64,000 bases of DNA from Campylobacterales bacterium. GTDB lineage: Bacteria > Campylobacterota > Campylobacteria > Campylobacterales > Sulfurimonadaceae. Where the stretch lies: NCBI GenBank assembly GCA_026390165.1, contig JAPLGM010000016.1, positions 1 to 64,000 of the forward strand, read 5' to 3'. The notes below the pieces were generated by a model, which was given only the letters and a program-made list of their open reading frames with translations, was not told the DNA's origin and searched no databases. Shown here piece after piece: positions 47,794-52,677 of the stretch. The stretch's first letter is position 1; every line of letters starts with the position of its first letter. The position numbers and the translations under genes were made by a program.

Positions 47794-50103
47794 ATGGCAA
47801 AAGATGTCGTATGTGCAATGGAGGTATCCCCCTCCACACCGTATCAAAGTGATTACAAAGGGCGACACTATCTGTTTTGCTCCAAGCATTGTCAGCACAA
47901 ATTTTTAGAGCACCCTGAAAACTTTCTCCCCTCTGAACCCTCACTCTCATCGTGTCACAATCATAGCTGTTCTCTCGATGCAGCTGAGAATGTTCTCTAC
48001 ACTTGTCCCATGCATCCTGAAGTGGAGCAAAAAGAGCCGGGAAGCTGTCCCAAATGCGGTATGGCGCTCGAACCCAAAACACTGCAACTCGAATACGATA
48101 CCACCGAATACGATACGATGAAGCGTCGTTTTTGGGTCAGCATGGTGTTATCAATCGTGGTATTAATCAGTGCGATGGGTGCAGAGTTTTTTCCCGGACA
48201 ATTTGATACGATGATCGATCTAAAATCGCGTCAGTGGATGGAGATGATTCTCTCGATTCCGGTCGTGTGGTGGGGCGGATTTATTTTTTACGTGCGTGCA
48301 TGGGAGTCGGTTCGCAACCGCAGTCTCAATATGTTTACCCTCATCGCACTGGGTACCGCGACGGCATGGATCTACAGTGCGACTGCCGTCCTTTTCCCCC
48401 ATATTTTTCCGGAAAATCTATCGATGCAGATGGGGGTTATTCCGGTCTATTTTGAAGCGGCATCGGTTATCACCGCACTCGTCTTGCTGGGGCAGGTGCT
48501 GGAACTTCGTGCCCGTAGCCGTACCAATGATGCGATTCGGCTGTTGCTGGGGATGACGCCGAAGAGCGCGCGTATCATCCGCGAAGATGGGAGCGAAGAG
48601 GAGATATCTCTCAAAATGGTTCAGCCGGGTGACAGGCTTCGAATCCGTCCGGGTGAGAAGATTCCTGTGGACGGTGAAGTGATCGAAGGGGAGAGTCATG
48701 TGGATGAATCGATGGTGACCGGAGAACCGATTCCCGTCTCTAAAAAAGTGGGAGACCGCCTCATCGGCGCGACGATCAACACAACCGGTGGGCTTGTTAT
48801 GCAGGCACAACAAGTGGGGGGTGACACGCTGCTTGCGCAAATCGTGGCAATGGTGTCGCAAGCGCAGAGAACCAGAGCTCCCATTCAGAAAACAGCCGAT
48901 ACGGTAGCGGGTTATTTTGTCCCTGTGGTCATTGCTATCGCCGTAGTGACGTTTATCGTTTGGCGCCTTTTCGGTCCCGAACCTTCGCTGGGCTATGCCC
49001 TCGTCAATGCAGTAGCCGTGCTGATTATCGCCTGCCCATGCGCGTTAGGATTGGCTACTCCGATATCGATTATGGTGGGAACGGGTAAGGGGGCGACAGC
49101 GGGCATTTTGATCAAAAATGCCGAGGCGCTGGAGATGATGGAAAAAATCGATACCCTTGTCATCGATAAGACGGGGACACTCACCGAGGGAAAACCGAAA
49201 CTGGTCTCCGTTATTTCCCAGAATAGTTGGGATGAAGGCTCGATTATTTCTCTGGCGGCCTCACTGGAACGAGGAAGTGAGCATCCTCTAGCGTCAGCGG
49301 TAGTGAATGCTGCACAGGGGAGGGGCTTGTCGCTGAGTGAAGTAGATCAGTTCAAATCAATAACGGGAAAAGGGGTCGTAGGTATCATCGAAGGGGAGAA
49401 TATTGCCCTGGGAAATATCAAGCTTATGGAGGATCTGGGAATCGAAACCGCCACGTTTATGGCTACGGCAGATGATATGCGCCGCGCTGGAGAGAGTGTA
49501 ATGTTTCTTTCGTGTGATGAAAAGATAGCGGCTATACTCGGGGTCGCTGACCCGATCAAAGAGACAACCTTGCAAGCGATTCGTGATTTGCATGAAGAGG
49601 GGATAACCATCGTGATGTTGAGCGGGGATAGCCGTATCACTGCCGAAGCGGTCGGAACCCAGCTGGGGATAGATCGTATCGAGGCTGAAGTGCTTCCGCA
49701 TCAGAAAGCCGAAACGATCAAACGGCTTCAAAGCGAGGGGCACTTTGTCGCGATGGCAGGAGATGGCATCAACGATGCACCCGCACTGGCACAGGCTCAT
49801 GTAGGGATCGCTATGGGGACAGGGGCGGATGTCGCGATGGAGAGTGCTGGAATTACCCTTATCAAAGGGGATCTGCGCGGTATTGTCCGCTCCCGCCATC
49901 TCAGCCGTGCCACGATGCGCAATATTCGACAGAATCTATTTTTTGCATTTGTCTATAACTCGGTGGGGATACCGATCGCGGCGGGGGTGCTTTATCCCTA
50001 TTTCGGGATACTCCTATCGCCGATGATTGCAGCGGCGGCGATGAGTTTTAGCTCGGTGTCGGTCATTACGAATGCGTTGAGATTAAGAAGTCAAAAGTTG
50101 TAA
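47794..50103 (+). CDS. Copper-translocating P1B-type ATPase with YHS and HMBD domains
   Basis: A 769-residue inner-membrane metal exporter. In place of the usual HMA domains it has an N-terminal YHS domain (VCAMEVSP ... [16 protein letters not shown]) and a heavy-metal-binding segment ([26 protein letters not shown]). Six to eight membrane helices, the ion-binding [11 protein letters not shown], the phosphorylated aspartate [11 protein letters not shown] and the [13 protein letters not shown] hinge follow. This layout is that of CopA-like Cu(I)/Ag(I) pumps. It has a GGGGGG run just before the start codon. It is noticeably more GC-rich than the DNA to its right. Confidence 0.95.
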
Positions 50104-50137
50104 TCAGTATAGTTGGGATGGATTACTTTCAAACTTT

Positions 50138-50257
50138 ATGCAGAATTTTTATCTCGAATACCCGCAATGCCGATCCCACGGTGTACCCTATTTTCAAATG
50201 CCAGACGGTGAAATCACCTCAAAAGTTCCGAAAGAGTACGAAGGGATTTATAAATAA
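50138..50257 (+). CDS. Possible 39-residue protein or gene remnant
   Basis: The frame from the ATG at 50138 reads MQNFYLEYPQCRSHGVPYF and on to a plausible hydrophilic end (PKEYEGIYK), with codon use that looks protein-coding. There is no ribosome binding site, and the frame is open upstream past 50104, so it may be the tail of a gene cut by insertion next to the copper ATPase. I recognise no family. The rest of the 50104-50379 gap holds nothing else clear. Confidence 0.3.
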   Translation: MQNFYLEYPQCRSHGVPYFQMPDGEITSKVPKEYEGIYK

Positions 50258-50379
50258 AAATCTTGTATTTTACATCCCGTTTGCCATGAGCCTATCGATA
50301 TGATCTGGTGGATAATTAGGCGTTGAAAAATACAATTTTATTGTATACTAAGTCATTAAATTAAAAATAAGGTATGGTC

Positions 50380-51417
50380 ATGAAAATTGTTTTTTTTAAT
50401 CACAAAGGTGGCGTTAGTAAAACAACTACAGCCTACAATCTTGGGTGGATGCTTGGAATATTAGAAAAAAAGGTTTTATTGGTGGATGCAGACCCTCAGT
50501 GTAATTTATCAGGATTAGTGCTAGGTGATGAATTTGACAAATATTATACCGAAGATACAACTAAAGAACACAATATTAAAGATGGGGTAAAGATGGCTTT
50601 TGGGGGTAAACCAATACCTATTCAAGCAGTCGATTGCTATTCACCAGATCGAAATAAAAATCTCTATCTCTTAGCTGGTCATGCCAACTTGAGTGAATAT
50701 GATGCCTCACTTAGTCTCGCACAAAACTCTAATAATGCTATTAGTGCTTTACAAAATTTACCAGGTGCTTTCAATGAACTCATTAATAAAACATCGGAAA
50801 AATATGAGATTGATTTTGTTTTGATCGATTTGAATCCTGGATTAAGTGCTATCAATCAAAATCTCTTTATTTTAAGTGATGGATTTTTGATCCCAACCAA
50901 TCCAGACCCTTTTTCTATTATGGCATTGGATACATTATCCAAAGTTTTACCGAAATGGGTCGATTGGGCAGACCGTATGAAAGATTTATTTGCCGATGCA
51001 GCCTATCCATTGTCGAATAGTCGTCCTAAATTTATCGGTGGTTTAATCCAACGATTTAATATTAGAAATGGAAAAGCAGCTAAACCGTATAGAGAAAACA
51101 TAGCAGATATTCAAAATATTATGCAAACCAAGCTTTTTCCATCATTTGAAAAAGCAAGGATGTTATTTGACAATGAAACATATCAAATTGCATCTATCCC
51201 CGAAAATTTTTGTCTAGCAGAAATTCCTGATTTTCAAGGCCTTTTGCCAAAAGCCAATGAAGCTGGTGTTCCCGTATTTGCTATTACTGATGAGGAAATT
51301 CATGAAGCTGGGGAAGTTAAAACTGGTCTAATGCAAAACCGTGAAAAGTTTTATGCACATTTTGAAAAAATTGCAAATCAATTAATTTTGGTAAAAGATA
51401 ATGCTAAAATTAAGTAA
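50380..51417 (+). CDS. ParA/Soj-like ATPase of a two-gene module
   Basis: A 345-residue deviant-Walker ATPase. The P-loop is FNHKGGVSKTTTAYNLG with both signature lysines, and the DADPQCNLSG switch and VLIDLNPGLSAIN motif follow. No ParB, centromere-like repeat or replication gene is nearby, so it is unlikely to segregate a replicon. Instead it overlaps by 17 bases a gene for a HEPN-type protein. I start at the ATG at 50380, which has AAGG seven bases upstream; an ATG two codons earlier is too close to it. The AT-rich composition suggests acquired DNA. A defence role is inference. Confidence 0.88.
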   Translation: MKIVFFNHKGGVSKTTTAYNLGWMLGILEKKVLLVDADPQCNLSGLVLGDEFDKYYTEDTTKEHNIKDGVKMAFGGKPIPIQAVDCYSPDRNKNLYLLAGHANLSEYDASLSLAQNSNNAISALQNLPGAFNELINKTSEKYEIDFVLIDLNPGLSAINQNLFILSDGFLIPTNPDPFSIMALDTLSKVLPKWVDWADRMKDLFADAAYPLSNSRPKFIGGLIQRFNIRNGKAAKPYRENIADIQNIMQTKLFPSFEKARMLFDNETYQIASIPENFCLAEIPDFQGLLPKANEAGVPVFAITDEEIHEAGEVKTGLMQNREKFYAHFEKIANQLILVKDNAKIK

Positions 51418-52060
51418 AGAGTTTGATGTACAGATACAGTCATGTAAAGAGTTATATGCTGTTTATGGTCACTTAAAAAATAATTTATCATACCCTCTTG
51501 ATTTATCTGATTTGCTAAGAGCACAAGTGGTTTATGCTGTTAGTGCTTTGGATAAATTGGTGCATGAATTGGTTAAAAAAGGGATGGTTGAAATTTTTGA
51601 AGGCAAACGACTAAAAACAACTACATTTTCTAATTTTGGAATTTCGCTCAATACATTGATAAAAATACAAGAAGTTGGTTCTATTGCGGTGCCTCAATCT
51701 ATTGAAGAGACAGCTATATATTGGTTTGAACGAGAAATTAGTTTAAAGCATAAAAGCTTGAGCTTTCAAGCCCCTGATAAAATATCTGAAGCATTAAGCT
51801 TAATTTGGTTGGAAGAACATAAATGGCAAAAGATTCATTTTAATATCATCATTCAGCCCATAGGTTCTTTAGTAACGATGACTGAAAGGGATATGAAAAC
51901 GTATTTAAAAAATATTGTTGCGCGTCGTAATCAAATTGTGCATGAAGCGGATATCAATATTATATGTAACTCAAAAGATACCATGGATGAGGATGAAGCG
52001 AATAATATCGTCCAATTTATTGATGCTTTGGGGAAAAGTATTTATAAATGTGTCATATAA
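51401..52060 (+). CDS. HEPN-domain protein, likely ribonuclease
   Basis: A 219-residue all-helical protein resembling the RiboL-PSP-type HEPN group. The catalytic R-N-x3-H motif of HEPN ribonucleases is clear (RRNQIVHEAD, about residues 177-186), and a conserved helix precedes it (QVVYAVSALDKLVHELVK). Such domains cut RNA in toxin-antitoxin and phage-defence systems. The start overlaps the ParA-like gene by 17 bases, showing tight coupling. The ATPase partner could gate the nuclease; no MNT-type antitoxin is present. Confidence 0.78.
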   Translation: MLKLSKEFDVQIQSCKELYAVYGHLKNNLSYPLDLSDLLRAQVVYAVSALDKLVHELVKKGMVEIFEGKRLKTTTFSNFGISLNTLIKIQEVGSIAVPQSIEETAIYWFEREISLKHKSLSFQAPDKISEALSLIWLEEHKWQKIHFNIIIQPIGSLVTMTERDMKTYLKNIVARRNQIVHEADINIICNSKDTMDEDEANNIVQFIDALGKSIYKCVI

Positions 52061-52077
52061 AATAGATAAGTGTTTGC

Positions 52078-52677
52078 ATGACCCCCATCACCAACAACAT
52101 GGACGTATTCGCCGAAAAATTCGAGGGCGTTGATCTGCACGGCAAAAAGATCACCAAAGCCGAATTTGATGACTGCACCTTCGTCTCCTGCGATTTCAGC
52201 GAAACCTTTTTTTCGTCTTGCAAATTTACCGAATGCCGTTTTGAAAACTGCAACCTGAGCCTGATGAAACTCACCAGTAGCAAAATGAGCGATGTCGAGT
52301 TTGTTTCGTGCAAGATGATCGGGATCGATTGGACGATGGGGGATTGGAAGAGTCTTCTCAGTGCCGACCCCTTGCATTTTCGTGAGTGCATCCTCAATGA
52401 TAGCAATTTTTTCGGTCTGAATTTGGAAGGGTTGGTGATGCGGGAGTGTCGAGCCAAAGAGGTTGATTTTCGCAACGGAAGTTTTAAAAAAGCGGATTTT
52501 AGTTTGAGTGATTTTAAAGGGGCGCTGTTTGGCAATACCCATCTTGAAGGGGCGAATTTCACCGACTCCTCGAACACCTCTATCGATATGCGCACCAATC
52601 ACCTGAAGGGGGCTATTTTCAACCGCTATGAGGCACTGTTTCTCCTCGAATCGATGGGGATTGTGTTGGTGGATTAA
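52078..52677 (+). CDS. Pentapeptide-repeat protein, Qnr-like
   Basis: A 199-residue right-handed beta-helix protein. Runs of A/C-D/N-L/F-x-x units cover most of its length (CTFVSCDFSETFFSSCKFTE, ECRAKEVDFRNGSFKKADFS). Such proteins can imitate DNA and protect gyrase, but many have no known role. It starts 17 bases after the HEPN gene on the same strand and could be a third member of that unit. Against this, its GC content is clearly higher, so the join may mark the edge of the acquired DNA. Confidence 0.88.
   Translation: MTPITNNMDVFAEKFEGVDLHGKKITKAEFDDCTFVSCDFSETFFSSCKFTECRFENCNLSLMKLTSSKMSDVEFVSCKMIGIDWTMGDWKSLLSADPLHFRECILNDSNFFGLNLEGLVMRECRAKEVDFRNGSFKKADFSLSDFKGALFGNTHLEGANFTDSSNTSIDMRTNHLKGAIFNRYEALFLLESMGIVLVD

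What the first reader, a model, noticed from the sequence alone, without database searches (positions are those of the whole stretch)
50380..52060. Overlapping ParA-like ATPase and HEPN ribonuclease pair without partition partners
A deviant-Walker ATPase with the full KGGVSKTTT P-loop overlaps by 17 bases a gene for a helical protein with a canonical RNxxxH HEPN catalytic motif. No ParB, centromere repeats or replication genes are present, and the DNA is AT-rich compared with the copper ATPase to the left and the pentapeptide gene to the right. HEPN domains are known RNA-cutting effectors in defence and toxin systems. A MinD/ParA-type switch controlling one would be unusual; I cannot name a described system of this make-up.
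Basis: partly seen in the sequence, partly recalled or inferred. Interest (0 to 1): 0.72.

Follow-up and report, generated by a model that had tools for sequence, protein, structure and literature searches.

The report
ATPase–ribonuclease pair, likely toxin switch
Two overlapping genes, a ParA-type ATPase and a HEPN RNA-cutting enzyme, travel together as a fixed pair across at least nine bacterial phyla and in Pf filamentous phages, and relatives of the ATPase are paired instead with other likely poisons, so this looks like one branch of a modular, largely untested toxin or anti-phage switch.

Summary
A 347-aa ParA/Soj-type ATPase (50374-51417) overlaps by 17 nt a 219-aa HEPN protein (51401-52060) with an RNxxxH motif, in a low-GC insert. 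The HEPN-linked ATPases form one clade. All 63 members with sequence downstream, from at least nine phyla, have the HEPN gene directly after them, usually overlapping; the only member without it stops at a contig end. The R and H are kept in every intact HEPN copy. ATPase and HEPN divergence correlate strongly (r = 0.85). ParB lies on other contigs. The pair is rare (0.3-1% of genomes sampled), horizontally spread, and is cargo of Pf-type filamentous phages. What appears new: sister ATPases sit in the same arrangement before SIR2 NADase-like or RelA/SpoT-like genes (one in this same genome), and Pf phages carry either the HEPN or the SIR2 version. Best reading: an ATPase-gated toxin module (toxin-antitoxin or abortive infection) in which the ATPase is the control part and the effector is exchangeable. 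Toxicity, trigger and direction of control are untested.

The parts
50374..51417 (+). ParA/Soj-like (SIMIBI, deviant Walker A) ATPase, 347 aa; likely true start ATG at 50380; proposed control subunit
   Evidence: AlphaFold2 pLDDT 93, nearest solved folds Soj/ParA and DIP2308 3pg5; Walker residues K11, K16, D38, D40, D152 in 61/61 homologues
50404..50430 (+). Deviant Walker A motif KGGVSKTTT
   Evidence: Sequence; conservation
51401..52060 (+). HEPN protein, 219 aa, predicted RNase effector
   Evidence: PF18735; AlphaFold2 pLDDT 95; closest solved structures are HEPN proteins (MNT-HEPN toxins, AbiV, Csm6)
51926..51943 (+). HEPN catalytic motif R176-N-Q-I-V-H181
   Evidence: R in 60/61, H in 59/61 homologues; the two copies without both residues are frameshifted
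51401..51417 (+). 17-nt gene overlap (coupled expression inferred)
   Evidence: same 17-nt overlap in the Sulfurovum and Sulfurimonas homologues
50330..50346 (+). Inverted repeat ATACAAT-TTT-ATTGTAT just upstream of the ATPase gene; possible operator, not significant
   Evidence: shuffle fraction 0.10; no conserved repeat across homologues

Best explanation
A mobile two-gene toxin-control module of toxin-antitoxin / abortive-infection type. The second gene encodes a HEPN endoribonuclease that, when free, cuts cellular or phage RNA and stops growth. The first gene encodes a ParA-type ATPase that no longer serves DNA partition; through its nucleotide-bound, dimerising state it holds the HEPN enzyme inactive and releases it on a cue such as phage or mobile-DNA entry. 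Shown here: fixed pairing, gene order, conserved active sites of both proteins, parallel divergence, horizontal spread, carriage by Pf phages, and the same ATPase superfamily coupled to other likely poisonous enzymes (SIR2, RelA/SpoT). Inferred: RNase activity, toxicity, that the ATPase inhibits rather than activates, the trigger, and a defence role.
For: 63 of 64 ATPases of the family have the HEPN gene directly downstream, mostly overlapping; the other ends at the contig edge. Searching from the HEPN side, 5/5 strong hits have the ATPase upstream (two of the five are the centre genomes chosen because they carry the pair). R/H kept in all intact copies. ATPase and HEPN distances correlate, r = 0.85, permutation maximum 0.15. 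HEPN-linked ATPases are one clade, 96/96 support, with phyla intermixed. Sister ATPases are coupled to SIR2_2 (hits to ThsA, Dsr and LmuA models) or RelA_SpoT genes. Cargo of Pf filamentous phages in HEPN and SIR2 versions. In a sister genome the same slot beside the pentapeptide gene holds a RelE/HigA-like pair (judged by eye). Closest HEPN folds include the toxins of MNT-HEPN systems. Prior prediction in PMC3710099.
Against: No experiment. No conserved operator upstream, unlike many type II toxin-antitoxin systems. Defence-island association is weak: about five restriction/CRISPR-type proteins among 150 neighbours, none among 129 controls, not a rigorous test. Antitoxin versus activator cannot be told from sequence. 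Structural Z of about 9 is modest for a helical bundle. In two homologues the HEPN gene is frameshifted with the ATPase intact, and in one the ATPase reading frame is interrupted with HEPN intact.
Confidence: 0.65

Rival explanations
1. Pure addiction (stabilisation) toxin-antitoxin system of plasmids and phages, with no phage-defence role: loss of the element frees the HEPN toxin.
For: Found on Burkholderia plasmids and in Pf phages, antitoxin-first gene order, overlapping genes.
Against: Many copies lie on long genome contigs with no evident plasmid context, and the sister branches use SIR2 and RelA/SpoT effectors of types known from abortive infection.
Confidence: 0.2
2. The ATPase is a sensor that must bind and ACTIVATE the effector (both genes needed for activity), as in many ATPase-nuclease defence systems, rather than an antitoxin.
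For: Related ATPases also occur alone; two HEPN frames are broken while the ATPase stays intact; ATP-bound ParA dimers are partner-recruiting platforms in known systems (family knowledge).
Against: No orphan close HEPN was found, as expected if HEPN without its ATPase is lethal (only 5 strong cases).
Confidence: 0.25
3. A ParA/MinD-type positioning or partition ATPase whose HEPN partner is a non-catalytic RNA- or protein-binding adaptor.
For: Full deviant Walker motifs and a Soj-like fold; PHROGs calls the family 'ParA-like partition protein'.
Against: No ParB or repeat array nearby; the HEPN catalytic R and H are among the most conserved residues.
Confidence: 0.1

Closest known systems
Predicted ParA/Soj ATPase + MAE_18760 HEPN dyad (Anantharaman et al. 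2013, PMC3710099)
   Same: ParA/Soj-type ATPase gene next to a HEPN gene with an Rx4-6H motif; proposed antitoxin + RNase toxin
   Different: Membership of our HEPN in MAE_18760 could not be checked by accession; Pfam puts it in PF18735 at modest score. The passages of the 2013 text that I read do not report phage carriage or effector exchange
MNT-HEPN (MntA-HepT) toxin-antitoxin systems
   Same: HEPN RNase with a nucleotide-binding partner encoded beside it; closest solved HEPN folds
   Different: The partner is a ParA-type ATPase, not a nucleotidyltransferase; no Tyr at the H+2 position (H-E-A), which MntA modifies in HepT (family knowledge)
ParABS partition ATPases (Soj/ParA, and the ParA-like protein DIP2308, 3pg5)
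   Same: Deviant Walker A ATPase fold, Z about 27 to Soj/ParA
   Different: No ParB or repeat array; constant HEPN partner; longer protein with inserted C-terminal part
SIR2 anti-phage systems (ThsA/Thoeris, DSR1/2, LmuA)
   Same: The sister ParA-like ATPases are coupled to a SIR2 domain that hits these models
   Different: Small single-domain SIR2 beside a ParA-type ATPase; no such system found in PADLOC 2023
NetFlax AAA-ATPase antitoxin hub D29 (PMC10440598)
   Same: An ATPase paired with diverse toxins including a HEPN node
   Different: D29 is the AriA/GajA/PtuA-type AAA ATPase, not ParA/SIMIBI

Membership tests
Predicted ParA/Soj-HEPN toxin-antitoxin dyad (2013) | ParA/Soj-type ATPase gene directly beside a HEPN gene | tested here: met
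Predicted ParA/Soj-HEPN toxin-antitoxin dyad (2013) | Catalytic Rx4-6H motif in the HEPN protein, conserved | tested here: met
Predicted ParA/Soj-HEPN toxin-antitoxin dyad (2013) | HEPN belongs to the MAE_18760 family | tested here: inconclusive
   All 18 sampled members match PF18735; none of the 30 best PF18735 loci of cyanobacteria has this ATPase beside it; the 2013 accessions were not available
Predicted ParA/Soj-HEPN toxin-antitoxin dyad (2013) | HEPN toxic, ATPase neutralises | not testable with these tools
   Needs expression assays
ParABS partition system | ParB/centromere-binding partner gene adjacent | tested here: not met
   ParB_N matches only on contigs C7 and C27; the downstream gene is HEPN
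ParABS partition system | parS or iteron-like centromere repeats | tested here: not met
   No repeat array at 49900-52300; single parS-type sites were not searched for
MNT-HEPN toxin-antitoxin | Partner is a MNT-type nucleotidyltransferase | tested here: not met
   Partner is AAA_31/ParA
MNT-HEPN toxin-antitoxin | HEPN fold of the toxin | tested here: met
   Top structural matches are MntA-HepT toxins, Z 8.6-9.0; modest Z, supported by the Pfam HEPN match
Known anti-phage defence system (PADLOC) | Match of both genes to a system model | tested here: not met
   No meaningful match for the window's ATPase or HEPN, nor for the Pf copies

The most novel reading that the evidence does not exclude
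ParA-type (SIMIBI) ATPases of this superfamily are a general-purpose switch for toxins: lineages have each adopted a different poison (HEPN RNase, SIR2 NADase, RelA/SpoT-type enzyme, perhaps a cyclase), forming an unrecognised class of modular anti-phage / inter-element systems that Pf phages carry as interchangeable cargo.
Probability: 0.45. Interest if true: 0.8.

Novelty: new variant of a known kind. Interest (0 to 1): 0.6.

Why it matters
A DNA-positioning ATPase fold re-used as a gate for toxic enzymes would be a new control principle for toxin-antitoxin and defence systems, and would explain some of the many 'orphan ParA' genes on phages and plasmids. It is directly testable: compact phage- and plasmid-borne copies exist, and effector-swapped sister modules allow the shared role of the ATPase to be separated from the effector.

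Tried and rejected
Partition system: rejected. Chance adjacency: rejected. Viral scan with the HEPN alone found nothing; the ATPase scan did. A recurrent third gene: none found in flanks apart from closely related loci. A conserved operator palindrome: not significant. Defence-island enrichment: suggestive only; hit counts are inflated by many overlapping methyltransferase models. Foldseek alone gave no significant match for the HEPN model; VIA-align ranked HEPN proteins first. Strict partner fidelity outside the HEPN clade: rejected for the RelA/SpoT branch, where a 52% relative lacks the partner. The cyclase-like partner in L016 has no Pfam match, so that identification is by eye only. No paper describing SIR2 or RelA/SpoT partners of ParA-type ATPases was found in the held library; most subscription papers and bioRxiv preprints are missing from it.

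Full report
Observation. The ATPase ORF runs 50374-51417 (the second ATG, 50380, is the start used by the closest relatives), the HEPN ORF 51401-52060, overlapping by 17 nt. Pfam gives AAA_31 for the first and HEPN_RiboL-PSP (PF18735) for the second. The insert is 33% GC with GC3 about 0.24, against 0.55-0.61 in the neighbours. The genome (a Campylobacterota relative; its nearest homologues are in Sulfurovum and Sulfurimonas assemblies) has ParB_N matches only on other contigs, one of them beside a Soj-type ParA. No repeat array lies near the pair.

Is it a unit? A scan of one genome per species with ATPase-only motifs, plus viral contigs, plasmids and phages, gave 64 ATPases above 380 bits; 63 have the HEPN gene immediately downstream (commonest offsets -8, -17, -14 and -4 nt) and the last ends at a contig edge. 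The next ATPases score 250 bits or less and lack HEPN; two further HEPN-linked copies found from the HEPN side (L114, L115) score 362-399 bits with a broader model and fall at the base of the clade. Starting from HEPN in 764 genomes of two classes, all five strong hits (two of them the centre genomes, chosen because they carry the pair) have the ATPase upstream (one ATPase frame interrupted), while the two weak hits do not. Of 61 aligned HEPN proteins, R176 is kept in 60 and H181 in 59; the copies lacking the motif are frameshifted. The Walker residues K11, K16, D38, D40 and D152 are invariant. ATPase and HEPN distance matrices correlate at r = 0.85 (2000 permutations, maximum 0.15). The correlation includes shared ancestry, so it shows co-inheritance, not contact.

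Spread. Copies lie in Campylobacterota, Pseudomonadota, Bacteroidota, Cyanobacteriota, Bacillota, Spirochaetota, Chloroflexota, Acidobacteriota and Thermodesulfobacteriota, intermixed in the tree, and in only 3 of 397 Campylobacteria genomes: patchy and horizontal. In two same-genus genomes the copper-ATPase / pentapeptide slot, or the stretch left of the pentapeptide gene, holds other cargo: one unknown gene (no Pfam match) and one gene pair that looks like RelE/HigA (the pair was named by eye from sequence, not by a search).

Phages. Prophage record AY324828 ('Pf1') has the ATPase at 928-1959 and, unannotated, a HEPN ORF of 175 aa that ends early, after the catalytic motif; phage WX-TY has a full 202-aa HEPN. 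A Mol Microbiol paper (PMC7379572) notes an uncharacterised ParA-domain gene in Pf5 of strain PA14; that AY324828 corresponds to it is my inference. Two viral contigs with the SIR2-type ATPase carry Pf-type genes at their ends (L172: gene 5 fragment; L173: integrase), and L172 has the SIR2 gene complete.

Effector exchange. ATPases of the same superfamily precede SIR2_2 genes in Salmonella, Vibrio, Photobacterium, Spirosoma, Burkholderia and viral contigs, and RelA_SpoT genes in two proteobacterial assemblies, Caballeronia and this very genome (contig C22, 44428-46248). The SIR2 proteins hit ThsA, Dsr and LmuA models. In the tree the HEPN-linked ATPases form one group (96/96), the SIR2-linked one group (100/100), the RelA/SpoT-linked two. 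Deep branches and outgroups are long, so the order among groups is unsure. Pairing outside the HEPN clade is not absolute: some ATPases are solo, including a 52% relative of the RelA/SpoT-linked one.

Structure. AlphaFold2 models are confident (HEPN pLDDT 95, ATPase 93). The HEPN model ranks MNT-HEPN toxins, AbiV and Csm6 among its first rows (Z 7-9, modest for helical proteins); the ATPase ranks Soj/ParA and DIP2308 first (Z about 27).

Mechanism. Antitoxin-first order, overlapping genes, a catalytically conserved RNase, and exchange of the effector for other growth-stopping enzyme types fit an ATPase-controlled toxin. Which way the control runs is not decided by these data. I favour inhibition in the resting cell with release on infection or element loss; activation on sensing is the main rival.

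Known or new. The ATPase-HEPN dyad was predicted as a toxin-antitoxin system in 2013 (PMC3710099). I found no experimental follow-up in the held library, no PADLOC model, and no report of effector exchange around a ParA-type ATPase. Hence 'new variant of a known kind'.

Weak points. Defence-neighbourhood evidence is thin; the control set was small and its loci were chosen by position only. HEPN-first evidence rests on few strong hits.

Noticed in passing
G000:C22:44428-46248 (L002): The same genome carries a related ParA-like ATPase (374 aa) followed after 3 nt by a RelA_SpoT-domain protein (230 aa): a sister module with another effector.
   Followed up: partly
L016:3782-5693: A ParA-like ATPase overlaps a 236-aa protein with a class III cyclase-like FLDILGYK start; no Pfam match.
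   Followed up: no
L013, L014, L021, L091, L092: Solo ParA-like relatives (about 32-37% identity) in Pantoea plasmids, in an E. coli record and a Helicobacter prophage, and in P22-like Salmonella phages near the CI repressor; no effector beside them.
   Followed up: partly
window 50180-50298: Left of the pair lies a stretch 87% identical to the end of a small intact ORF that precedes the pentapeptide gene in a same-genus genome (L096, 75 aa), apparently a relic.
   Followed up: partly
window 52078-52677: The pentapeptide-repeat gene is present in 28 of 41 same-genus genomes, beside different genes in those examined, and has a second copy (89%) on contig C18; it may mark a site of variable cargo.
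   Followed up: partly
L089:408-935 (-): The HEPN ORF in the Pf prophage record AY324828 is unannotated and ends early after the catalytic motif, unlike the full-length copy in phage WX-TY.
   Followed up: yes
L098:2199-3266: Between copper ATPase and pentapeptide gene a relative has a 355-aa gene of unknown family (no Pfam match).
   Followed up: partly
L136, L137, L155: Strong PF18735 HEPN hits in cyanobacteria sit beside, or (L155) near, DUF262-like (ParB-type nuclease) sequence rather than ParA; DUF262 named by eye.
   Followed up: no
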